Source: Chrysochromulina tobinii
Lineage: Eukaryota > Haptophyta > Prymnesiales > Chrysochromulinaceae
Assembly: GCA_001275005.1 (NCBI GenBank)
Contig: JWZX01001185.1
Coordinates: 1 to 25,258 of the forward strand
Length of the DNA stretch: 25,258 nucleotides
Direction: 5' to 3'
Shown here in pieces: positions 10,069 to 25,258 of the stretch; within the stretch, counting starts at the first letter, position 1, and each line of letters starts with the position of its first letter. The position numbers were made by a program, and so were the translations under genes. The notes under the pieces are model-generated. The model did not search any database, was not told the origin of the DNA, and saw only the letters and a list, made by a program, of their open reading frames with translations.

Positions 10069-13000
10069 ATGCAAATCCTGTTAGGAAACGTCGCTCGCGA
10101 CTTGGCGTCCTGGCTGCCAGCGCTCCGCCTCAACGTGCCGGACCAACAGCTGAGTGCCCGCGAATCGCTGCAGAATCTCACGTGCGCGATTACTTCGGTC
10201 GGTAACTTCAGTGCAGGCACCGTGGCAGCAAACCTCAGCCTCCTCATGACTGGCTTCGGTGCATCGTGCGACGGCGAATTGGTGCGTCACGGCATCCAAG
10301 GTGACACGACACGAAACGAGTCGATTTCAATCGATGTGCCTCGCTTCGAAGCCGTAATTGCGATAGCTGATCCTGTCCGAGCGTGGCTGCCAAGCTGCTA
10401 CCTCGATGGTAGTGTAGCCGTCAGCACGGTACCAGAGAGGGCATTGAGCGGCAGCGCACTCTGTGATCGCATGGAGCTGCTCGTGAATGAGACGCTCACG
10501 CCGCTGCTCGTGTCTCTAGCTGGCGCGCTCCCTTCTACACCGCCTCCGTTGCCGCCCATGCCGCCTCCGTCGCCGCCCTCGCCATTGCGCTCGCCTGAGC
10601 CGGGCGGCGGATTGATCGACTGGACGAAGAGCCACGCGTTCGCCGTGGCCGCGTCCGTGCTCGACCAATACGGCGCCCCGTTTGTCGACCGGATAGTCGA
10701 CCGACTGACCAATGGCACTGGCACCCTCCACATCCTCCTCAGCCTGGAGGCCGCCTTGCTGGACCCTTCCACGCTGGTTGCCCCCTTGGTCGGCGCGTCC
10801 AATGGCACGAGCCCCTTACTCAACGTGAGCGTACAGCTCCAGGCGCTGCACCTAGCTGGACTCGACTCCATCCTCTCTCTCAGCCTCAAGGCGCCCGATA
10901 CGGCGCATCCGCAGAGCCTTCACGTGGGGATCGAGGCCCAGTCGCTGCGGCTCGGGGCGACCGTCTCGATTCTCGCGGCTCCCACCGGGGCCGTCGTATC
11001 GGGCGTCGGAGGTGGCGCCACCGACGCGATGGGGCTCTACGGCCCTGCACTCGAGGAGACATTTGAGATCACACTCGAGATGGTGAACGCCTCGATGGAC
11101 GTGTCCATGCTGTGGGGGCTCGATGCGGCGGGCATCGCATCCTTGCAGGCGGCGTATGCCGATGGCTCTGCGTCCTCCAGCTCGTCGGCCGCCCTCCTCG
11201 GCTGCATCCAGGCCGCGACTGTGGAGGTCAACCTGACGGCTATCCGAGCGGGCTTCGGGAGAGCGCCCGGCATAGGCATCGTGCGCGTGGCGGCGCCCGG
11301 AAGTGACGAGAAGCAGTTGGGAACGATGCTCAACCAGACGCAGCGCTGGCTCGAGGACGCCTTCGGACCGAACGTCGCTGCTGACCTCGCGATGGTCGCT
11401 CTCAACAACGCCGTCAAGCCGAGGCTCGAGCTCGCGCTGCAAGCTGCACTGCTGAACCAGAGTGCAGTGTGCGAGCTGCCGTCCCCCGCTGCGCCGCAGC
11501 CCGCCTTTAGCAAGAAGGAAGAGGTGAGTTATGCCGTCGGCGGTGCACTCTATGCACTGGTGGCGACGCTCGTTATGGCACGCTTCCTGCAGCAGCGGCG
11601 AACGAAGCAGCGCGCCGCCGCCAACCGGCTCCTCGATGCCCTACACGCCGCCGACAACCGGCTGCTCGATGCGCTTCTCGACGCCCAGAGCCCTCGACTT
11701 GAGCGCCGTGCTCAGCGAGCCGAACCGAGCCCGACGGCATATTACGAAGTCACACCTAGCGGGACCTCGTTGCCGCTGGTCGGGCATCGGTGCCAAGCCG
11801 AGGAGCCGGCCTGGGCGGCCCTCGCGGACCACTCGGACCTCGCGATTCGCCTGCTCGTTCCCTTGCTGCTTGCGATCCAGGCGGTGCTCAGCGCACAGCT
11901 CGCGCTCGGCTCGGTGTGGTCGTCGACAAAGCTCGTGCTCGGCCCCAGCCGGGAGCTGCCGCTGTACGAGTCGACGTTTTGGGACAATGTGAAGCAGTTT
12001 TGGGACAGCCAGGACGAGGCGACGGCGGTTTTGCTCGTTATGGCATCCGCGGTGCAGCCCGTCGTCAAGATCGGGATCATGAGCGCCGCGTGGTGGCTCC
12101 CTCTGCCCCCCTACCTCCGCAACCGCGCGATCACGATGCAGGAGCTCACGGCCAAGTACTCGATGGTGGCCGCCTACGTGAACGCGTACCTCCTCATCGT
12201 CTTTTCCTTGAGCCTCAGGCTGCCGCCGTCCCCGCGGCGCTCCGAGGCGGCGATCGCCTTGGAACCGAACGCTGCGGAACCTATCGCTGAGATCGTGACG
12301 GACGTTCTTCCGGGCGAGGTGCTCTTCGTGTATGCTCAAATCATCGCCCAGGCGACGATCACACTCCTGCGCGTCCTGCACGACCGTGCAGCCGCCTCCC
12401 AGCCCTCCTCAACCGCCGCCGCCGAGGCCGAGGCCGAGGCCGCCGCCAGAACGGCCAATCTCGCGGCCATCGACGTGGACTCATGGTTCCCCGCCGCCCG
12501 CACCCCGAGCACGAGCGCCGTCGTGAGCGGCAAGCCTCGCGCTCTTCGGATTCCATCATGCTCGACGGTCATCGGTGTGGCCTGCGGCGCCGTCGCGTCG
12601 GCCGCGTCGCTCTCGATGGTGGTCCACGGAGGGAAGCTGTATGGCGTCGAGCTCTCGTCGGTGAGCTTTGAGTACACCGGGCTCCTCGCGCCCTGGATCG
12701 ATGCATCAGGACCCGAGTGGACGATGGGTGCCAACGGCAGCCTGACCAGCGCGTATGCGCTCGGGGAGCTCCCGAGTTTGGTGCGTGAGCGCGTCTTGAA
12801 CGATGACGCCGTCCGCGACAACCTAGTCTTTTGGACCTGGGCACTGCCGATTGTGACGCCGGCGGCCACCATCGCCCTCTCCCTCATTCTCGCGCTTCTG
12901 TGGGGGCAAGCCGCCGCCGCGGGTGGGCGTCGGCGCGCACGGGCTGGCGGACGGACGCACCGACTGATCGGGCTCGTGCACCGCGCGCTGCAGCTGCTCG

Positions 13001-13248
13001 CCCCGTGGTCGTTCCTCGAGGTGTATGCGCTGGGGGTGCTCGTGCTCGTGCCGGATGTGCGCACCGTCGCGCACTTTGTCTTCGACGAGAATCGATGCCC
13101 TGCGGCGATCTCGACTGATCTCGGGGAGAGCTGCCTCGAGATCGATGGCCACTTCACCGATGGCACGTGGGTGCTTGTGGGTACGGCCTTCCTGATCTTT
13201 TGCACTGTGCAGCTCGCCATCTTGAGGCTGGGACCGCAGGCGCAGTGA
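10069..13248 (+). CDS. PqiA-like polytopic membrane protein with a large N-glycosylated ectodomain (5' end possibly incomplete)
   Basis: 1059 residues from the ATG at 10069. Residues 1-484 look extracytoplasmic: about a dozen N-x-S/T sequons, scattered Cys, and a Pro-rich hinge (about 157-180). About nine membrane helices follow, near 488-507, 591-616, 651-676, 699-716, 751-771, 834-854, 921-945, 982-1003 and 1034-1054. The last eight form two similar four-helix lobes. Each has an amphipathic stretch, then a helix with Pro (SAVQPVVK; PIVTPAAT), then a (K/P)(Y/W)S-x-x-x-x-Y segment, as in the paraquat-inducible protein A superfamily, which in bacteria belongs to lipid-trafficking systems. The ectodomain's alternating hydrophobic pattern could be a BPI/TULIP-like lipid-binding fold, which is inference. 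No signal peptide follows this ATG, and the frame stays open upstream to a TGA at 10018, so an upstream exon is suspected. The SPT gene starts 290 bp downstream. Confidence 0.75.
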   Translation: MQILLGNVARDLASWLPALRLNVPDQQLSARESLQNLTCAITSVGNFSAGTVAANLSLLMTGFGASCDGELVRHGIQGDTTRNESISIDVPRFEAVIAIADPVRAWLPSCYLDGSVAVSTVPERALSGSALCDRMELLVNETLTPLLVSLAGALPSTPPPLPPMPPPSPPSPLRSPEPGGGLIDWTKSHAFAVAASVLDQYGAPFVDRIVDRLTNGTGTLHILLSLEAALLDPSTLVAPLVGASNGTSPLLNVSVQLQALHLAGLDSILSLSLKAPDTAHPQSLHVGIEAQSLRLGATVSILAAPTGAVVSGVGGGATDAMGLYGPALEETFEITLEMVNASMDVSMLWGLDAAGIASLQAAYADGSASSSSSAALLGCIQAATVEVNLTAIRAGFGRAPGIGIVRVAAPGSDEKQLGTMLNQTQRWLEDAFGPNVAADLAMVALNNAVKPRLELALQAALLNQSAVCELPSPAAPQPAFSKKEEVSYAVGGALYALVATLVMARFLQQRRTKQRAAANRLLDALHAADNRLLDALLDAQSPRLERRAQRAEPSPTAYYEVTPSGTSLPLVGHRCQAEEPAWAALADHSDLAIRLLVPLLLAIQAVLSAQLALGSVWSSTKLVLGPSRELPLYESTFWDNVKQFWDSQDEATAVLLVMASAVQPVVKIGIMSAAWWLPLPPYLRNRAITMQELTAKYSMVAAYVNAYLLIVFSLSLRLPPSPRRSEAAIALEPNAAEPIAEIVTDVLPGEVLFVYAQIIAQATITLLRVLHDRAAASQPSSTAAAEAEAEAAARTANLAAIDVDSWFPAARTPSTSAVVSGKPRALRIPSCSTVIGVACGAVASAASLSMVVHGGKLYGVELSSVSFEYTGLLAPWIDASGPEWTMGANGSLTSAYALGELPSLVRERVLNDDAVRDNLVFWTWALPIVTPAATIALSLILALLWGQAAAAGGRRRARAGGRTHRLIGLVHRALQLLAPWSFLEVYALGVLVLVPDVRTVAHFVFDENRCPAAISTDLGESCLEIDGHFTDGTWVLVGTAFLIFCTVQLAILRLGPQAQ

Positions 13249-13538: not shown

Positions 13539-16500
13539 ATGCACCCGGAAGCAGCCAGCAGCAATCTAGCAGTGCAATTCCTCTCGAGCTTCATGGGCTC
13601 GGTGCCAACCCTCGCCTGGCGGCCGCCGCCGCCGCCGCCGCCGGAGAAGGTCGCGCTCGTCTTCGCGCGCGCCATTCAACGTAATTGGCCGGGCATCGTC
13701 ATCCTCGGGCTTCTTTTTGGCGCCATCCTGTGGCAAATTGGCGAGCGCAAGGCGGCGAAGAAGCCGTCCAAGGGCAAGGACAGCGGCCCAGCCGTCCCCG
13801 AACCCAAGAAGGAGAAGGACTTTGTCGACCCGTCGTTACCGATCCTGCTGCACGCCTACTCGGGCTACGCCTACCTCATCATGCGTGGCTACTTCCTAGA
13901 CTTCCTGCAGATCCTCGTCGGCACCCTTTTCTTCTGGCGCATGTTTGGAATGACCGGCGGCAAGCCGACGTCGCCGCCGCTCGCGGCCAAGGCGGGACCG
14001 CCCTTCAACTCAGGCTGGGTGATCTTCTACACACGTAGGCTCTACAGCCGCATCCAAGACTGCTGGAACCGGCCGATCGCCGGAGAGGCGGCGACATCGC
14101 TGGACGTGATCATCCGGCAAAAGCAGAGCAGCGGCGATGCGGCACCGCTCGTGCCCACGGGTGAGAAGCGCCGCTGCCTCAACCTGGGCTCGTACAACTA
14201 CCTGGGCTTTGGCGGCCTGGACGAGACTTGCACGCCAGCCGTCATCGAGGCGCTGCGCACGTACGGCGTTTCGGCGTGCTCGTCGCGGCTCGAGGCGGGC
14301 CATGTGCCGGTGCACTCGGAGCTCGAGTCGACTGTCGCGCGCTTCCTGGGCAAGGAGAGCGCCCTGGTCATCGGGATGGGCTTCGCGACGAACTCGACGA
14401 TCATCCCTGTGCTCGTCGATCCGGAGGGCAACGGCAAGGGTGTGCTGTTGCTCTCGGACACTCTCAACCACTCGTCGATCGTCGAGGGGGTGCGCGGCTC
14501 GGGCGCCAAGGTCGTGCCGTTCGCGCACAACAACATGCACCACCTCGAGGCCATTCTGCGCCGCGCGACTGACGACGGGCAGGCCTCGGGAGTCCCGTGG
14601 CGCAAGATCATCATCCTCGTCGAGGGGATCTACTCAATGGAGGGCCAGTTCTCGAGGTTGCGCGAGATTGTGGCGCTCAAGAAAAAGTACCGCGCGTACT
14701 TGTACCTCGACGAGGCGCACTCGATCGGGGCCGTTGGGCCGGGTGGACGTGGAATCACTGACCTCTTCGGCATACCGACGGCGGATGTGGACATCATGAT
14801 GGGCACGTTTACCAAGTCGTTTGGCTCGATTGGCGGCTACCTCGCAGCCGACGCGCACGTGATCTCGGCGCTGCGCCGCCACTCGGCCTCGTCGCTGTAC
14901 GCGGCGGCCATGTCGCCGCCCGCCGCTCAGCAGGTACTCTCCGCGCTCAAGATGATCATGGGGGAGGATCCAGCCTCGGGCGACCGAGGCACGAAACGGA
15001 TGGCGCAGCTCGTGCGCAACTCGAACAAGTTCCGCGAGGGACTCATTCGGATGGGCGGGCGCGTGCTCGGCGACCGCGACTCGCCCGTGATCCCGATGAT
15101 GCTCTACCATCCCGAGAAGATTTACAACTTCTCACAGGCGTGCTTGCGGCGTCACCTCGCGGTCGTCGTCGTGGGCTACCCGGCCACACCGTTGCTGCTC
15201 TCGCGTGTGCGCTTCTGCATCGCCGCATCGCACACCGAGGCGGAGCTCGATGAGGCGCTCGTCAAGATCGAGGCGGCCGCGAAGGAGGTGGGCGTGCTCT
15301 ACGACAAGGGCACCGAGACGGCGCTCTCGCCGGATCCCGACGCCGTCGCCAAGGCCCATATGGCTCAGCTTAAGGCCGCGCCGCTCGACGATGGGCTGGC
15401 TACTGCGTGGACGCCCGAGCCGCTCGTGCCGCCTTCGCCCCCGGGGCGAGAGGAGCCCGAGGCGGCGTACCAGCTCGCTCTCCAGACGGCGCTCACGGTA
15501 GCCAAAGGCAAGCCGGCGCTCGAGCTGCGCACGACCGACTTTCTGCGCATGACCAGTGCGGAGGCGACACGTGCCGCGGCGGAGGCCGCGCTGCGCAAGT
15601 ACGGCTGCGGCACGTGCGGCCCGCGCGGCTTTTACGGCACGCTCGACGTGCACCTTGAGCTCGAGAGCGCGCTCGCGTCCTTTCTGCAGACCGAGGCGGC
15701 GATCATATACTCGTATGGCATCGCGACGCCCTCGTCCGTCATCCCTGCTTTCGTGCGCGCGGGGGACGTACTGTTCGCTGATGAGGCGATCCATTTCACC
15801 ACCGCAGTGGGTGTGAAGCTCGCGCGCGGCGCGCCGCGATACTTTGCGCACAACGACATGGTGCAGCTCGAGGCGATGCTCGCCGCGCAGGCGCAGGCGG
15901 ACCGAGCGCTACCAGCCGCGAAACGTCCGCGGCGCTTCCTGCTGGCCGAGGGGCTGTACGCCAACGGCGGCGGCTTGTGTAACCTCCCCGAGCTGCTCCG
16001 GCTACGTGACGCCTTCGGCTGCTACCTGATCGTCGACGAGACTCTCTCGATCGGCGCCCTGGGCCCCACGGGCCGCGGCGTGGCGGAACATTTTGGGCGC
16101 GCCCCATGCGAGATCGACATCATCGTCGGGTCGATGGAGCACGCAATTGGCTCTGTCGGGGGCTTCTGCGCGGGCTCGACGATGATCGTCTCGCACCAGC
16201 GCCTCTCGGGCACGGGCTACTGCTTCTCGGCGTCGCTGCCCGCCTTCGCCACGTGCGCCGCGCTTGCGGCCCTAAAGCTGATAGACGACGAGCCGCAGCG
16301 CTTGGCCCAGCTGCGCGAGGCGACTGCAGTCCTCGGGAGCACGCTCACGACCCATCTAGGAGGGCTCAAGCACGTCACCATCGATGCGCATGAGGCGTCG
16401 CCGCTCGCGCACGTGGGCCTCTCGGCGGGCGCTCGCCAGGTGCTCTCCGTCCGACAGCAAGAGCAGCTGCTGCGCGCGGCGGCGCTCGCGACGGCGCGCG

Positions 16501-18008
16501 CCCGCGACGGCGCGGCGGTGCAGCTGATGGTGCACTCGGGCCTCGCCCACATCCAGACGCCGCGCCCGCCGACCATTCGGCTGGCCGTGCACTCGGGCGT
16601 CGTGCCGAGCGCGATGGACGCGGCGCTCAAGGCGCTCGCGACGGCGCTGGGCGAGGAGCTCAAGAAGCATGAGCGTACACTCGCGCTCGCGACGACGCCC
16701 TCCAACAGCGACAGCCGAGTGCACGACGACCACGACGACCACGACGCCGCGCGCACCAAAGCTGCCAACAAGAAGCAGGCGGTTGGCTCGTCGTCGTTGG
16801 ACGGCGGCGCGGGCGTCGAGCCGAACGCGATGGCGGGCGCTGGCGTCGCCTCGTCGTCGTCGCCCGCACTGCCCGCCGAGGCAGCGCCGCCCGTCACCAT
16901 CCCCGTGCTGTATACCATCGAGTTCATACGGCAGGTCGCGCGCCGTTACGTGCTTCGTCAGATGGAGTGGCATGCCTTCTGGCTCGGGCCGCAGCTCGCG
17001 CGCCTGCGTGCCGCGCGCAACCCGACGCTGCACGCGATCTTCACCGTCGGCCACTTTTGCGGATCGGAGGCTTTCTATCTGCTCGCGATTCCAGTCCTCT
17101 GCTGGTCGCTCGGCCAACGAGCGCACATGAACATGTTCGTCGCCTACTTTGCCCTCAACATGTACGCGGGCAACTGGCTCAAGAACTTTTTCGCTCTCGG
17201 CCGCCCCGAAGGAGCAGAGGGTTCCCCACAGCGTGCCATGTCTCTGCTGGCCATGTCGGACTACGGCTGGCCGTCCATGTACGCCGTGAACGCGGTCGGG
17301 CTGCCCTTTTTCGCGCTGCGCTACTGGTTCGGCGGCTTCGGTCAGGGGACGCTGTACTCGGCTGAGAATGAGTTCACCACCGCCGCGAGCTACACGATGG
17401 GGATCATTTGGGTGCTCACGGTGTGCGGCGCGCGACTGTACAGCGGAGCCTCTTCGCCCGCGGACGTTCAGGGCGGCATGCTCGTGGGTGGCGTGCTCGT
17501 GCGTGTCTGGCTACCCGTATGCGAAGACGTCGACCGTCTCCTCTCATCGTCTGCAACCATCTTCGGCCTGCCACAGCCAACCTTTCTGCTGCTGCTCGCT
17601 GTGCTGCTGCTGCTCGTACATCCCTTCACGCCAAACGACCCTCGCGCCTGGGCCGCCCTCGAGACTTCCACAAAGGCGGTCGCCTTCACCACCTGGTACA
17701 TCATCGGCGCCAATTACTGCTCGACGCAGCCCGCGTGCGCCGCCTTCGAGCCGCCGCCCGTGGCGACGCTTGGCCTCGCGCCCGCGGCGCTCCAGATGGT
17801 GGTGCGATCCGTGCTCGGGTTTGCTCTCCTGCTCGGCGCGAGCTACGGTGCCCAAGCGCTCACCGGCCTGGCCGACCCTTGGCTGCGCTTTGCGCTGCCG
17901 AACAAGCCGTGCTTACCGCGCCTGGCGCGCAGCGGCGCCGTCTTCACGGCGAGTGGGCTGATGGTCTCGTTGGTCGTGCCCACCGCCCTCGCGGCCAGCG
18001 GCTTGTAA
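13539..18008 (+). CDS. Serine palmitoyltransferase LCB2-LCB1 single-chain fusion with a C-terminal S1P-phosphatase-like (pseudophosphatase) domain
   Basis: 1489 residues if started at the ATG at 13539, which precedes the first family-like segment; earlier in-frame ATGs (13263-13410) would add a featureless leader. N-terminal helices lie at about 50-68 and 108-135, as in LCB2. LCB2 half (about 200-590): NLGSYNYLGF, DEAHSIG (Asp391) and GTFTKSFGSIGG with PLP-lysine Lys426. LCB1 half (about 660-1045): GTCGPRGFYGT (Cys693) and GSMEHAIGSVGG, where His868 replaces the lysine, as LCB1 subunits lack it. SPT condenses serine with palmitoyl-CoA at the ER, the first step of sphingolipid synthesis. A low-complexity linker (about 1045-1120) leads to a roughly eight-helix domain resembling sphingosine-1-phosphate phosphatases. 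PAP2 motif 1 is intact (KNFFALGRP, K1215/R1222), but motif 2 is PSMY (Tyr1248 for His) and motif 3 is ARLYSGASSPAD (Ser1305 for the His nucleophile). This domain is probably catalytically dead. Confidence 0.92.
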   Translation: MHPEAASSNLAVQFLSSFMGSVPTLAWRPPPPPPPEKVALVFARAIQRNWPGIVILGLLFGAILWQIGERKAAKKPSKGKDSGPAVPEPKKEKDFVDPSLPILLHAYSGYAYLIMRGYFLDFLQILVGTLFFWRMFGMTGGKPTSPPLAAKAGPPFNSGWVIFYTRRLYSRIQDCWNRPIAGEAATSLDVIIRQKQSSGDAAPLVPTGEKRRCLNLGSYNYLGFGGLDETCTPAVIEALRTYGVSACSSRLEAGHVPVHSELESTVARFLGKESALVIGMGFATNSTIIPVLVDPEGNGKGVLLLSDTLNHSSIVEGVRGSGAKVVPFAHNNMHHLEAILRRATDDGQASGVPWRKIIILVEGIYSMEGQFSRLREIVALKKKYRAYLYLDEAHSIGAVGPGGRGITDLFGIPTADVDIMMGTFTKSFGSIGGYLAADAHVISALRRHSASSLYAAAMSPPAAQQVLSALKMIMGEDPASGDRGTKRMAQLVRNSNKFREGLIRMGGRVLGDRDSPVIPMMLYHPEKIYNFSQACLRRHLAVVVVGYPATPLLLSRVRFCIAASHTEAELDEALVKIEAAAKEVGVLYDKGTETALSPDPDAVAKAHMAQLKAAPLDDGLATAWTPEPLVPPSPPGREEPEAAYQLALQTALTVAKGKPALELRTTDFLRMTSAEATRAAAEAALRKYGCGTCGPRGFYGTLDVHLELESALASFLQTEAAIIYSYGIATPSSVIPAFVRAGDVLFADEAIHFTTAVGVKLARGAPRYFAHNDMVQLEAMLAAQAQADRALPAAKRPRRFLLAEGLYANGGGLCNLPELLRLRDAFGCYLIVDETLSIGALGPTGRGVAEHFGRAPCEIDIIVGSMEHAIGSVGGFCAGSTMIVSHQRLSGTGYCFSASLPAFATCAALAALKLIDDEPQRLAQLREATAVLGSTLTTHLGGLKHVTIDAHEASPLAHVGLSAGARQVLSVRQQEQLLRAAALATARARDGAAVQLMVHSGLAHIQTPRPPTIRLAVHSGVVPSAMDAALKALATALGEELKKHERTLALATTPSNSDSRVHDDHDDHDAARTKAANKKQAVGSSSLDGGAGVEPNAMAGAGVASSSSPALPAEAAPPVTIPVLYTIEFIRQVARRYVLRQMEWHAFWLGPQLARLRAARNPTLHAIFTVGHFCGSEAFYLLAIPVLCWSLGQRAHMNMFVAYFALNMYAGNWLKNFFALGRPEGAEGSPQRAMSLLAMSDYGWPSMYAVNAVGLPFFALRYWFGGFGQGTLYSAENEFTTAASYTMGIIWVLTVCGARLYSGASSPADVQGGMLVGGVLVRVWLPVCEDVDRLLSSSATIFGLPQPTFLLLLAVLLLLVHPFTPNDPRAWAALETSTKAVAFTTWYIIGANYCSTQPACAAFEPPPVATLGLAPAALQMVVRSVLGFALLLGASYGAQALTGLADPWLRFALPNKPCLPRLARSGAVFTASGLMVSLVVPTALAASGL

Positions 18009-18030: not shown

Positions 18031-18117
18031 GCAGCGAGTGCTCGCTTCACAGCGAGTTCTCTCTTCACAGCGAGTGCTCTCAGGCGATGCTAGCTTCACA
18101 GCGAGTACTCTCTTCAG
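18031..18117. repeat. Degenerate direct repeats of cttcacagcgagt
   Basis: Copies start near 18031 (partial), 18045, 18063 and 18094. The 18045 and 18063 copies form an 18-bp tandem pair. A related sequence, cttcacggcgagtgggct, occurs inside the SPT coding end at about 17942, so the array may descend from it. Confidence 0.75.
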
Positions 18118-20491: not shown

Positions 20492-23400
20492 ATGCCACTT
20501 TTTGGCTCGAGCAAGAAGGCGACTAAAAAGCTTGCCAGCTCGTCTCCCGGCCCGGACGTGGCTCAGTCGCCAAGAGGCACGGTGACAGCAGACGTGCCAG
20601 CTACGCCAACCGTAAATCTTGCGGCGGATGCCGTCACAACCCCATCCTTACCAGCTAAGGGTGGCTCGACAACTTACGAGTTCGAGTCTGGGAAGCCCAT
20701 CGGCCTTCAGCTGGCGGATCACAGCAGCGGCGCTGTTGTGGTGGTTGACGTGGTGGACGGCACGTTAGCACAGCAGAAGGGCATCATGACCGGGATGACG
20801 TTGCTTGCAGTCAATGGCCAGAGCGTGGCGGCCATGAAAAAGGACGACGCGCTCAATCTTGTCAGGAGTACCCCCGCCGGGGCCGCGCGGGTGCTCGCCT
20901 TCTCGAACGAGCGGCTCCCAGAGGCCGGAGCCGCTGGCGCGGCACCAGCTTCCTTGGCCACGTCATCCGATGAGAACAAGGCCGAGTCTGTGCCATCCGC
21001 CGTAGCTGCGTCGTCCAGTGCTCTGTCCGAGGCCATCAGCCATCCCGGCGGCGCGACTACGTACGACTTCGAGCCTGGAAAGCCTATTGGTCTCGCGCTA
21101 TCAGACAAGGTGCTCAACGGTGCCATCGTGGTAACTGACGTTGTGGCCGGCTCACTGGCGCAGCAGAGGGGCCTCATCATTGGCGTGGCTCTGCTAGCTG
21201 TCAATGGCGAAAAAGTTGCAGGCATCTCCAAGGACGACGCGCTCAACCTCATCAAGCAGATCCCGGCAGGGGCGGTGCGGCGCCTCACGTTTACGGCTGA
21301 GCGGCTCGCACCTCCATCGGCCAGTGTGCTTGCAACCACGTACGACTTCGACGCTGGTAAGCCCGTCGGCCTCGGGCTAGGCGATCACGCAAGCGGCGCC
21401 ATTGTGGTGACCGAGGTGGTGGATGGCACACAGGCACAGCAGAAGGGCATCATGACCGGGATGACGTTGCTTGCAGTCAATGGACAGAGTGTGGTGGGCA
21501 TGAAAAAGGACGGCGCGCTCAATCTCGTCAGGATTACCCCTTCCGGGGCCGCGCGCCGCCTCACCTTCTCGAACGAGCGGCTCACAGAGGGCGCTGCTGC
21601 CGATCCTGTAGTGGTCACCACGCCTGCCGCCGCCTCGCCGCCTGCCGCCTCGCCGCCTGTTGCCGCGGCGCCACCCGCCTCGACCTCTATCACGTTGCCT
21701 GCTGGCTCCCAACCTCCAGCATCACCACCTCCAGCATCGCCTTTCTCAATCAAGCGACCTGCTGATTCTCCTCCTCCTCTCGCTTCCCCGCCTCCTGCCA
21801 CAGCTCCCGCCGCCGCCATGCCCCCCGCCGCCGCCGAGCCCATCGCCTCACCTCCTCCCACCGTGAAGCCGCCGCTGGACTCGTCTAGCACGCTGGGCAT
21901 CGCTCCATCTTCGAAACGCTCCATTCGGCGCGCATTCAGCTTTGGGAGCCGGTCGACGCGCGCACCCAAAACCGGACTTTCGCTCTTTGGACGGCATCCT
22001 CGCACGGAAGCCCCCGCTGCAGCGCCCGCCGCTGCAGCGCCCGCCGTGGCATCGCCCGCCGTTGCAGCCGCCAGCTCGACGCACTCGAAACCCGTGCGAC
22101 GAGCTTTCTCCTTTGGCAGTCGCGGACGAGCATCTGGTGCCCAGCCCGCTGCGAAGCTGGATAGATCACCACTTCCACGCCCAAAGCCATCATCGATCCA
22201 ATCTCCGACACAATCTCCGACACCCGCTGCCCCAGCAATCGACGCACCGACGGCGGCGGTGGCCGACCCCGCGTCACTGGTGAGCGTGGTCAAGTTCACC
22301 CTCAAGCTTGCCGGTGACGTCTCCTCGTTCACCCCGAGCGTGCAAGCCGAGATCACTTATGCGATCGCCGCCGAAGCGGGCGTCCAGCCGTCGGCGGTGG
22401 AGATTGCTGTGACTTCGGGCAGCGTCATCGTCGACGTGAGCATCAAGACGGCGACGGCGACGGCGACCTCAGTGCTGTCGAAGATGGCCAGCGCGACGAG
22501 CAGTCCGAGCAGCGCGACCGCCATGCTCGCGAGCGTCACCGGCGTCTCATGCGCCGTGATCGACGTTACGAAGCCAGCCACCATCACAGCCGATCAGGCC
22601 GAGGAAGCGGAGGAAAAGCAGACCAAGCTGGCGGAGCTCAACTCGCGTATCGACGCCATCGCCGCCGAGGACGGACAGATCAAAAAGGCGATCGCCGAGA
22701 CCGCGGCGGCCGAAAAGGCGGCTGCTGAGACAGCGGCGACCGAAAAGGCGGCGGTTGACAAGGCGGCGGCCGACAAGACGGCGGCCGAGAAGGCGGCGGC
22801 CGACAAGGCGGCGGCCGACAAGGCGGCGGCTGACAAGGCGGCGGCTGACAAGGCGGCGGCCGACAACGCGGCGGCCGACAAGGCGGCGGCCGACAAGGCG
22901 GCGGCTGAGAAGGCGGCGGCCGAGAAGGCGGCGGCCGAGAAGGCAGCGGCTGAGAAGGCGGCGGCCGACAAGGCGGCGGCCGACAAGGCGGCGGCCGACA
23001 AGGCGGCGGCTGAGAAGGCGGCAGCTGAGAAGGCGGCGGCTGAGAAGGCAGCGGCAGAGACCCCAAAGCGGGTCGGCTTGAGCTTGCGCGAGCTCGCCGA
23101 ACGCAGCACCTCGAAAGCTGAGTCGGGCTCTGAGACGCTAAGCGGGCCTCCTGATTCGCCCGCATTGGCTTTTGGTGTGGCGCTACGGAAGGCCTCGCCG
23201 ACGGCAAAGCCGGCCTCTTTGCTGCCGCCTCCCACACCGAGCTTTGCCGACCAGATTGCAGCCGCGAAGCTCAAACCAACGGCCAAGACCACGCCCGCCA
23301 CGACGCTCGACCCAGCTGTGCCATCGGCAGTGACAACTCCTAAGGCTGCACCCGCGAAGTGGAAGCGTCCAGCAGCACCAGCGCCGGCTACATCTCCTGC

Positions 23401-25258
23401 AGCGCCGGCAACACCTCGTGCAGCGCCGGCTGCAGCGCCATCAGCAGCACCGGCGGCAGCGCCACCCACCTCATCATCACCTCCAGCAGAAGCACTTAGA
23501 AAGTCGATGGTCGCATCTGGCAGGGCGGCGCCTTCCCCGCCAACTATTCCGCGCGTCACGTTGCCGTTGCCTCGGCAGTCGAGAGCGGCGCCGCCGTACA
23601 GTGCGGTTGCGGGCACGAGCGGCGCAGACGGCGGCGAGAAGGCACCATTGCTCGGGGAGACAACTCCTCGAGAGAGCGACTCTGACCTGCGCGACGTCGA
23701 TGGGCCTAGCACTCACAGCAGCCCGCGCACTGCAGATGAGCCGCCAAGCACTCACACCAGTCCTGCAAAGAAAGCGGGGGGAGGCGCCTCTGGATTGGCA
23801 TCAAAAGATCCCGCCGATAGCCCCACCAACAGTGATCCCGCCGACGACGTCGATGGGCCTAGCACTCACAGCAGCCCGCGCACAGCAGATGAGCCGCCAA
23901 GCACTCACACCAGCCCTGCAAAGAAAGCGGGGGGAGGCGCCTCTGGATTGGCGTCAAGAGATCCCGCCGATAGCCCCACCAACAGTGATCCCGCCGACGA
24001 CGACGCTCCAGACGAAGCCAAAAGCTTGCTTGGGGGCAATATCCGCTCGGACGGCGCCGAGGGCGAAGTGGAAGAGGTTCAACCTTTGCTCGCAGAGGCG
24101 AGCGCTGTGGACGGCGCGGGCAGCGGCAAGGCAGCCCCTACTACCTCCCAGCCCCTTGCACTGACAATGGGCAGGATGCGCGCGGGTGCGCAAGAACGCT
24201 CGGCACGCTCGGCACGGCTCCAGATCGGCTCGGGTGGAGGTGGCAGCTCGGGTGGAGGTGGCAGCTCGGGTGGAGGTGGCAGCTCGGGTGGAGGTGGCAG
24301 CTCGGGTGGAGGTTCGGGCCGTTGGAAGTGGACTGCAGCTTGTGCTCTGCTAACTGCGACCGCTCTGATTTTCGGATGGACGGTTGTAGCACAACCTCAT
24401 CCACCGTCGCCGCCGCTCGCACCGCCGCCGTCGCCGGCGCCACCGCCGCCGCCGGTCGCGCCTCCTCCAAGCCCTCTGCCTTCGGAACCACCGCCCTCGC
24501 CGACTCCCGCGCCTCCCCCAAGCCCTCTGCCTTCGGAGCCACCGCCCTCGTCACCGCAGCCGTCACCTCCGCCTTCACCGACGCCACTATCGCCGCAGCC
24601 TTCGCCGCCACCACCTGCACTACCGCCGCCGCCGCCATCGCCCTCGCCGCCGCCACCACACCCTCCGGCAACTCCACCACCACCCTCGCTGCCACCACCC
24701 AGCCCACTACCTCAGCCCCCGCCAGCTCCACCGCCTCCATCACCGCCCCCGCCTTCTCCACCGCCTGCTCCGCCTGGCGCGGAGTACTCATCCGTCGTGA
24801 CGGCCACTTTCGTCATCGAGGGCGATCCGTCCGACATCTCCGGTGACCTCGAGCAGCAACTCCGCGCCAACCTGGCCAGCAGGCTGGGGGTCGACCCCAC
24901 CGATGTCATCCTTCGCATCACCGCGGGAAGTACCATCGTCGAGGCCACCATCGCCGTTCCGTCACATGCCTCTTCTCGGACTACGGCACTGGCGGTGCTC
25001 GAAGACATTGTGCTCGAGGATCTCTCTACCGACCTCGGCGTGACCATCACCTCGATCAGCGGAGTGGCCGCCACCTCGCACGTGTTCTTGGCACCCTCTC
25101 CTCCACCGCCCTCGCCTCCGCCACCCTCGCCACCGCCCTTGCCGCCACCGCCCTCCCCTCCACCATCATCTCCGAAACCCTCCCCCCCACCATCGCCTCC
25201 GCCTCCGTGGCCAGACTCGCCTGAGCCATCGCCACCGCCGCCTCCTCAGCCGTTGGCT
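20492..25258 (+). CDS. Large type II-like membrane protein: three PDZ-like domains, Ala-rich repeat helix, Gly-Ser linker, one TM helix, Pro-rich ectodomain (3' end beyond the window)
   Basis: An uninterrupted frame of 1589 codons from the ATG at 20492 (MPLFGSSKK) to the last base of the window. Three PDZ-like domains lie at ~62-141, 191-271 and 284-364, each starting (T)TY(E/D)F and containing G(M/V)xLLAVNG. Next: Pro/Ala-rich sequence, two copies of RRAFSFGSR (from residues 479 and 536), a ~95-residue alpha/beta domain D1 (599-692), 24 Ala/Lys/Asp-Glu pentapeptides (~737-857), a duplicated 51-residue segment (from 1068), SGGGGS repeats (1247-1276), and a single membrane helix (~1280-1302). 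A Pro-rich stalk (~1304-1430), a second D-type domain (D2, ~1435-1535) and more Pro-rich sequence follow. No signal peptide is visible, so the PDZ side should be cytosolic and the Pro-rich side extracellular. The likely role is a membrane scaffold linked to the cell covering (inference). Confidence 0.88.
22694..23060 (+). repeat. 15-bp coding minisatellite encoding Ala-Ala-Ala-(Asp/Glu)-Lys
   Basis: About 24 units of a 15-bp repeat (forms of gcggccgacaaggcg) encode the pentapeptide A(D/E)KAA, with a few variants ([20 protein letters not shown]). The block is flanked by ordinary coiled-coil-like sequence. The predicted structure is one long charged alanine helix of about 120 residues. Confidence 0.92.
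23693..23998 (+). repeat. 153-bp in-frame tandem duplication
   Basis: Two copies (23693-23845 and 23846-23998) differ at only a few bases. Each encodes 51 residues starting [18 protein letters not shown], rich in Ser-Pro and Thr-Ser-Pro sites. High DNA identity indicates a recent event. Confidence 0.92.
24230..24319 (+). repeat. 18-bp perfect repeats encoding a Ser-Gly4-Ser linker
   Basis: Four identical 18-bp units (24230, 24248, 24266, 24284) and a variant fifth unit encode SGGGGS repeats directly before the membrane helix. Flexible-linker function is inferred from composition. Confidence 0.95.

What the first reader, a model, noticed from the sequence alone, without database searches (positions are those of the whole stretch)
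13539..18008. Three-part sphingolipid protein: LCB2, LCB1 and an S1P-phosphatase-like membrane domain in one chain
LCB2-LCB1 single-chain SPT is known from coccolithoviruses and haptophytes, but I know of no description of a third, S1P-phosphatase-like domain of about 360 residues at its C-terminus. The frame is uninterrupted from LCB2 through the last helix, with no splice or stop between domains. It places the first committed enzyme of sphingolipid synthesis and a relative of a sphingosine-1-phosphate turnover enzyme in one polypeptide with fixed stoichiometry.
Basis: partly seen in the sequence, partly recalled or inferred. Interest (0 to 1): 0.88.

Follow-up and report, generated by a model that had tools for sequence, protein, structure and literature searches.

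The report
Sphingolipid synthase fused to dead phosphatase
A gene of a likely haptophyte alga encodes, in one uninterrupted reading frame, both halves of the first enzyme of sphingolipid synthesis followed by a domain of the lipid-phosphatase family that lacks both catalytic histidines, so this third part would likely not cut phosphates and is predicted instead to sit in the membrane, bind lipids and regulate or anchor the enzyme.

Summary
One frame (13539-18008, 1489 codons) encodes LCB2, LCB1 and a PAP2-family domain, with a coding signature unbroken across the junction. It is no assembly join: in 15 of 15 relatives of comparable length the third domain follows LCB1, and the same order occurs in named Diacronema, Ostreococcus, Cymbomonas and Lotharella proteins. 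The domain models well and matches human glucose-6-phosphatase over nearly its whole length. The implied function fails: of 37 sequences with the domain, 0 keep the nucleophile His and 3 the other catalytic His, while K1215, S1246 and R1299 stand in 37. Two free-standing relatives in the same assembly keep both His. W1244, P1307 and Q1311 are invariant in the fused form and differ in both free ones; two near-identical proteins differ at 1 of 374 domain residues. Best reading: a single-chain SPT with a built-in pseudophosphatase, likely a lipid-binding regulator or anchor; this role is untested. My searches found no published description. New variant of a known kind.

The parts
13539..18008 (+). 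Complete open reading frame of the three-part protein, 1489 aa
   Evidence: third-position GC high throughout and low outside
13674..13931 (+). N-terminal hydrophobic segments of the LCB2 part (peaks at residues 46-64 and 113-131)
   Evidence: Kyte-Doolittle windows, a crude measure
14001..15302 (+). LCB2 catalytic domain, residues 155-588
   Evidence: 495.9 bits to Arabidopsis LCB2a chain, 436.7 to human SPTLC2; model, fold match
14814..14816 (+). Lys426, the PLP lysine position (GTFTKSFG)
   Evidence: aligned with the same motif in solved LCB2 chains; position
15303..15503 (+). Linker 1; no membrane helix (highest 19-residue hydropathy 0.47 over residues 576-700)
15504..16673 (+). LCB1 domain, residues 656-1045; His868 where LCB2 has the PLP lysine, Cys693 in GTCGPRGF
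   Evidence: (287.8 bits to human SPTLC1), positions
16674..16883 (+). Linker 2, residues 1046-1115, variable, predicted disordered (pLDDT under 50 at residues 1056-1117)
16884..18005 (+). PAP2-family domain, residues 1116-1489, predicted all-helical with the fold of nearly the whole of human G6PC1
17181..17207 (+). Motif C1, KNFFALGRP (K1215, R1222)
   Evidence: K in 37 of 37, R in 21 of 37
17265..17282 (+). Motif C2, GWPSMY: the catalytic His position is Tyr1248
   Evidence: His in 3 of 37
17430..17468 (+). Motif C3, ARLYSGASSPADV: the nucleophile His position is Ser1305; R1299 kept
   Evidence: no His between R1299 and Q1311 in any of 37, R in 37 of 37

Best explanation
The frame encodes a single-chain serine palmitoyltransferase (LCB2 then LCB1) joined to a PAP2-family domain that lacks both catalytic histidines and therefore likely works not as a phosphatase but as a built-in lipid-phosphate-binding regulator and membrane anchor of the enzyme. 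Shown: domain order, one frame, the PLP lysine in LCB2 only, loss of the two histidines, retention of K1215, S1246 and R1299, low divergence of the domain. Predicted: the membrane fold. Inferred from the published roles of the retained residues in active PAP2 enzymes: the pocket can still hold a phosphate group, most simply that of a phosphorylated long-chain base, a downstream product. Inferred and untested: occupancy of the pocket changes SPT activity, giving feedback control in the same chain, in place of or beside ORMDL. The domain may also replace the membrane helix that LCB1 has in yeast and mammals (recalled), which is absent from the linker here.
For: LCB2 and LCB1 with their diagnostic residues. 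PAP2 family and fold. Nucleophile His 0 of 37, C2 His 3 of 37; K1215, W1244-P1245-S1246, R1299, P1307 and Q1311 in 37 of 37. Free-standing L005 and L004 in the same assembly are the best hits of the all-lineage domain-3 profile (45.9 and 38.3 bits) among the seven other PAP2 loci fetched (L001-L005, L007, L008; one further match, on C366, was not fetched); they keep FPSLH or FPSTH and R-x5-H, and differ from the fused form at W1244 (F, F), P1307 (L, L) and Q1311 (A, L). One amino-acid change in 374 between P0001 and P0002 in this domain against 13 in 390 in LCB1 and 9 in 70 in linker 2. Roles of C1-C3 residues, and a catalytically inactive PAP2 precedent (PLPP7), from passages of PMC7564803. 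SPT feedback by sphingolipids, with S1P among the proposed signals, from the introduction of PMC10261145.
Against: No ligand, activity or interface was measured; linker 2 is unstructured in the model and no inter-domain confidence was available. R1222 of motif C1 is lost in 16 of 37 and D1309 is Asn in 14 of 37, so the phosphate site is weakened in the green lineage, where the C1 and C3 loops also align less surely. Retained residues could be structural. No ORMDL or small-subunit family match was found in the assembly, but these families rang in no control genome either, so absence is not shown. Nine two-part rows lie among the three-part rows of the tree, so the domain is either dispensable in some lineages or was gained more than once. 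Constraint rests on one pair of proteins without DNA, so no selection test was possible.
Confidence: 0.5

Rival explanations
1. The third domain is purely structural: an inert multi-helix ER anchor or assembly platform that replaces the LCB1 membrane helix and perhaps the small subunits, without binding a regulatory lipid.
For: No membrane helix between LCB2 and LCB1; catalytic residues lost; no small-subunit family match in the assembly (uncontrolled).
Against: Many of the conserved columns lie on the old active site: K1215, S1246 and R1299 stand in 37 of 37, and W1244, P1307 and Q1311 beside them are invariant in the fused form but not in the two free ones. A mere anchor would not obviously need these. 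Single-chain SPTs without the domain exist.
Confidence: 0.3
2. The third domain is an active S1P or lipid phosphatase, coupling synthesis and turnover in one chain.
For: PAP2 family by Pfam and fold; K and two R of the site kept in the window protein.
Against: Nucleophile His replaced by Ser (19 of 37), Asp 12, Glu 4, Thr 1 or Ala 1, and the other catalytic His kept in 3 of 37; free-standing relatives with both His exist in the same assembly.
Confidence: 0.04
3. The old site has taken up a new chemistry, with Ser1305/1306 or other residues acting on a lipid headgroup.
For: Ser or Thr at 1306 in 37 of 37 and new invariants W1244, P1307, Q1311.
Against: No invariant histidine replaces the lost pair in motifs C2 and C3; position 1305 varies among S, D, E, T and A.
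Confidence: 0.08
4. Two neighbouring genes joined by an assembly error or a missed intron.
For: None found.
Against: 15 of 15 relatives of comparable length have the domain joined to LCB1; coding signature unbroken across the junction; frame kept through indels in the linker; P0094, under a transcriptome-style name, has all three parts.
Confidence: 0.01

Closest known systems
Coccolithovirus single-chain SPT (EhV; here P0138 of EhV-201, 870 aa)
   Same: LCB2 then LCB1 in one chain
   Different: No third domain by profile; the PMC5371807 passages speak only of LCB1 and LCB2 parts, which are two genes in EhV-18 and EhV-145
Human and plant SPT (SPTLC1/SPTLC2, LCB1/LCB2a) with ORMDL
   Same: Both catalytic domains, PLP lysine in LCB2 only, fold; regulation by a sphingolipid-sensing membrane partner is the functional parallel (PMC10261145, abstract and introduction)
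   Different: Separate chains plus small subunits; the regulator is ORMDL, a different protein; no PAP2 domain
Human G6PC1 (glucose-6-phosphatase)
   Different: 12-13% identity; G6PC1 has a catalytic His176 (mutated in one solved chain, title), the fused domain has no His there
Free-standing PAP2 proteins of the same assembly (L004, L005), S1P-phosphatase-like by recalled motifs
   Same: Best profile hits, L004 aligned over most of its length, same order of motifs C1-C3
   Different: Intact histidines, Phe before PS, Leu two places after the C3 His; not fused
PLPP7/NET39, a PAP2 protein inactive by loss of catalytic residues
   Same: Catalytically inactive PAP2 family member (PMC7564803 passage)
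   Different: Not a fusion with a biosynthetic enzyme (recalled); not compared here by sequence

Membership tests
Serine palmitoyltransferase | LCB2 domain with PLP lysine | tested here: met
   K426 in GTFTKSFG aligned with solved LCB2 chains
Serine palmitoyltransferase | LCB1 partner domain without the lysine, with the GTCGPRGF motif | tested here: met
   H868 at the lysine site, C693; 287.8 bits to human SPTLC1
Serine palmitoyltransferase | Condensation of serine with an acyl-CoA | not testable with these tools
   needs an enzyme assay
Single-chain SPT | LCB2 and LCB1 in this order in one frame | tested here: met
PAP2 superfamily | Family profile above its cut-off | tested here: met
   PF01569 30.8 bits, cut-off 27.2; of 6 other three-part proteins scanned, P0055 and P0094 pass, P0132 is below (14.1), and P0134, P0146 and P0153 show none
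PAP2 superfamily | Helical PAP2 fold | tested here: met
   model pLDDT 88.8; the first six Foldseek rows are G6PC1 and a bacterial PAP2 enzyme and the first 18 VIA-align rows are PAP2-type phosphatases (the acid phosphatases counted as PAP2-type by recall)
PAP2 phosphatase (active enzyme), including S1P phosphatase | C3 nucleophile histidine | tested here: not met
   Ser1305; His in 0 of 37
PAP2 phosphatase (active enzyme), including S1P phosphatase | C2 histidine (PSxH) | tested here: not met
   Tyr1248; His in 3 of 37
PAP2 phosphatase (active enzyme), including S1P phosphatase | Phosphate-coordinating K and R of C1 and R of C3 | tested here: met
   K1215, R1222, R1299 present in the window protein
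S1P phosphatase subfamily by sequence | Closer to S1P phosphatases than to other PAP2 families | tested here: inconclusive
   best profile hits in the assembly are L005 and L004, called S1PP-like only by recalled motifs; no named S1P phosphatase was compared; the best solved fold is G6PC1
ORMDL regulator | ORMDL profile in the protein or assembly | tested here: inconclusive
   not among the Pfam families of the protein; 0 matches in the assembly, but the family rang in no control genome

The most novel reading that the evidence does not exclude
Several algal groups carry the sphingolipid feedback switch inside the synthase itself: a phosphatase that was inactivated long ago and turned into a receptor for phosphorylated long-chain bases, fused to LCB2-LCB1, working in place of ORMDL; coccolithoviruses hold the enzyme without this switch and so run an ungoverned SPT during infection.
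Probability: 0.2. Interest if true: 0.92.

Novelty: new variant of a known kind. Interest (0 to 1): 0.72.

Why it matters
SPT is the rate-limiting step of sphingolipid synthesis, and how cells sense sphingolipids to control it is still being worked out even in humans. A synthase with a conserved, by sequence catalytically dead phosphatase built into the same chain offers a one-gene system to test lipid sensing. It occurs in named haptophyte, green-algal and chlorarachniophyte proteins, and it changes how the well-known viral SPT should be read: that enzyme lacks a part which its haptophyte relatives have.

Tried and rejected
Active phosphatase: rejected on the missing histidines. Assembly error or hidden gene boundary: rejected. 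A free-standing, His-bearing close relative in the protein database: a search with the domain alone gave 31 hits (8000 candidates scored), none with the histidines where the motifs can be read (over P0001-P0047 C2 is readable in 39 of 47 and always PS[ML]Y, C3 in 45 of 47 and never with His; the rest are partial, and P0040 and P0043 are garbled in part). 29 of the 31 do not reach LCB1, so some could in principle be free-standing. Third domain in viral contigs: four scans answered and none returned an SPT relative, not even for the EhV query, so they say nothing about viruses. One origin without losses: a tree holding all 23 three-part rows in one clade is rejected (p-AU 5e-49), so losses or repeated gains are needed. 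Whether EhV SPT lies inside the haptophyte three-part group: unresolved (p-AU 0.379 for the 11 haptophyte-type rows without EhV, 0.144 for EhV and P0143 with the four other two-part rows). Sequence search of the domain in solved structures: four hits of E 0.72 or worse, all nucleoside diphosphate kinases, taken as chance. Solved relatives of L004: YodM, E 9e-5. Naming the organism by a haptophyte 18S primer: 0 matches, uninformative, as of the three universal SSU sites found two are bacterial/plastid-type genes and one matches no family. Papers: PMC4822627 and PMC4114960 are not held, so the E. huxleyi host SPT as described there was not read. In the structural second look, no solved S1P phosphatase stands in the 50 rows shown, which excludes nothing. 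Tree cautions: both trees used LG+G4; EhV, P0143 and Diacronema are odd in composition and Pelomyxa, P0144, Diacronema and Amoebophrya are long. Rows dropped: P0002, P0048, P0049 and P0050 were left out by hand (P0049/P0050, Leersia, match only the LCB2 half twice), as were rows covering 700 or fewer profile positions; the redundancy filter left 92 of 114 rows (33 three-part before, 23 after), and I chose 43 of those 92 for the second tree.

Full report
What is there. The window holds one open frame, 13539-18008 on the plus strand, 1489 codons. Pfam finds two aminotransferase I/II stretches and a PAP2 domain at residues 1200-1325 (30.8 bits, cut-off 27.2). Against solved structures, residues 155-588 match LCB2 chains (best Arabidopsis LCB2a, 494 bits) and about 618-972 match SPTLC1 (302 bits). 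The PLP lysine position is filled by K426 in the LCB2 part; the LCB1 part has H868 there and C693 in GTCGPRGF. No hydrophobic segment lies between the two parts.

One gene, not two. Third-position GC stays between 0.81 and 0.88 over seven successive segments, linkers included (0.70-0.93 in windows of 60 codons), and is 0.56 and 0.61 in the flanks. The closest database protein, P0002, is 98% identical; the gaps between them lie in the second linker and the frame is kept. A search with the third domain gave 15 proteins of comparable length (among the 7992 candidates scored), and in all 15 the domain follows LCB1 in one frame; 5 of the 15 are cut at the N side. A second search with the domain alone gave 31 shorter proteins, of which only 2 reach LCB1 and can show the fusion. 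No transcript of this locus was available; P0094, with all three parts, carries an assembler-style transcript name from the eukprot source (that this source holds transcriptome proteins is recalled).

How widespread. A search with the LCB2-LCB1 part gave 4247 proteins among 7990 candidates scored, of which the 120 best were listed. Of the 106 that were new (P0048-P0153), 20 have the third domain by a profile built from the window's family (each over 70 bits). Named ones among these 20 are Diacronema lutheri (Haptophyta), Ostreococcus and Cymbomonas (Chlorophyta) and Lotharella (Chlorarachniophyceae). Named single-chain SPTs without it are from Prorocentrum, Perkinsus, Amoebophrya, Pelomyxa, Effrenium and EhV-201. 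On a tree of the LCB2-LCB1 part only (92 rows), all 23 three-part rows fall in one set of 32 (support 98), with 9 two-part rows among them; the fewest changes are 3 against a mean of 20.6 for shuffled labels. Some of those 9 may be incomplete genes (P0105, 809 aa, for one). A more careful tree of 43 rows needs 4 changes, and a single clade of all three-part rows is rejected. Since the third domains are homologous and share fused-form invariants, one gain and several losses is the simpler reading, but repeated gains are not excluded. EhV SPT falls in a set with the haptophyte-type rows (96/98); whether it lies inside them, or elsewhere, is unresolved.

Why it is not a phosphatase. In active PAP2 enzymes the C3 histidine attacks the phosphate, the C2 histidine helps break the bond, and K/R of C1 and R of C3 hold the substrate (PMC7564803, passages). 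In an alignment of 37 sequences with the domain (two of them, P0007 and P0017, without an LCB2 part; some near-identical), the C3 histidine is present in 0 (S 19, D 12, E 4, T 1, A 1) and the C2 histidine in 3 (otherwise Y 17, A 16, S 1), while K1215, W1244-P1245-S1246, R1299, P1307 and Q1311 are present in 37; R1222 is present in 21, and 1309 is D in 23 and N in 14. The green rows have one residue fewer in the C3 loop, so their letter at 1305 is uncertain, but no row of the 37 has any His between R1299 and Q1311. The assembly also has free-standing PAP2 proteins. Two of them, L005 and L004, are the best hits of the all-lineage profile among the seven other PAP2 loci fetched (45.9 and 38.3 bits; one further match was not fetched). 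They keep FPSLH/FPSTH and R-x5-H, but have F, L and A or L where the fused form has invariant W1244, P1307 and Q1311. This is the pattern expected of a domain that lost catalysis early and was then held to a new role.

Constraint. Between P0001 and P0002 the changes are 6 in 154 (N-terminal part), 2 in 434 (LCB2), 4 in 67 (linker 1), 13 in 390 (LCB1), 9 in 70 (linker 2) and 1 in 374 (third domain). A decaying passenger would not be expected to change least. This is one pair, without DNA of the second, so it is not a test of selection.

Mechanism. Shown: architecture, loss of the catalytic histidines, retained phosphate-site residues, low divergence. Inferred: the pocket still binds a phosphorylated lipid and its occupancy alters SPT. 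The parallel is ORMDL, which makes human SPT respond to ceramide (PMC10261145, abstract and introduction); that introduction also cites evidence for S1P as the sensed lipid. Recalled, not tested: ER PAP2 pockets face the lumen while SPT acts on the cytosolic side, so a signal would have to cross the membrane. An ORMDL profile gave 0 matches and the small-subunit profile 0 in the assembly, while a ceramide-synthase-type profile gave 20; the first two rang in no control genome and prove nothing.

Organism. The assembly has 53.2 Mb in 2253 contigs. It contains bacterial/plastid-type rRNA genes and, on one of the same contigs (C2186), an rbcL whose nine best solved relatives score 887-955 bits, followed by 832, 824 and 651 and then 600 or less. 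The organisms of these chains are recalled, not printed: the leaders are of the red-lineage type, 1rsc (600) is cyanobacterial. This points to a red-lineage plastid, if that contig belongs to the same organism. With the kinship of the protein to that of Diacronema, haptophyte is likely but not proven.

Novelty. Searches for a description (listings, of which 20 of 29, 20 of 250, 20 of 40, 0 of 0, 10 of 78, 4 of 4, 1 of 1 and 8 of 8 papers were shown; PMC5371807 and PMC5519370: passages) showed single-chain viral SPT but no third domain. The library holds only open papers, and two papers on sphingolipid synthesis in the Emiliania host were not held. The chain is a new variant of a known kind: known SPT, known PAP2 fold, known idea of pseudoenzymes, in a combination that I did not find described.

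Noticed in passing
L004 (G000:C1771) and L005 (G000:C2227): Two free-standing PAP2 proteins with both catalytic histidines that resemble S1P phosphatases by recalled motif; useful presumed-active controls.
   Followed up: partly
P0094, P0100, P0104: A distinct three-part group in which the C2 histidine is kept (PSIH) but the C3 nucleophile is Ser; possibly an intermediate stage of inactivation.
   Followed up: partly
P0124 (Pelomyxa), P0112/P0116/P0117 (Perkinsus), P0128/P0149 (Amoebophrya), P0067 (Prorocentrum): Single-chain LCB2-LCB1 SPT is more widespread in protists than coccolithoviruses and haptophytes.
   Followed up: partly
L011 (G000:C1668:30807-31679): A second, distant aminotransferase-family relative of LCB1 in the assembly, 33% identity, 435 aa frame.
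   Followed up: no
10069-13248 +: 1059-aa frame just upstream with a PqiA-like membrane domain (PF04403, 36.2 bits).
   Followed up: no
20492-25258 +: Frame of at least 1588 aa with PDZ domains and a repeat (15-base unit, 23.5 copies) in the region of a match to the HC2 histone-like profile.
   Followed up: no
18032-18116: Short tandem repeat (18-base unit, 5 copies) directly behind the stop codon of the three-part gene.
   Followed up: no
G000:C2186 and C1598: Bacterial/plastid-type rRNA genes in the same assembly, with rbcL on C2186.
   Followed up: partly
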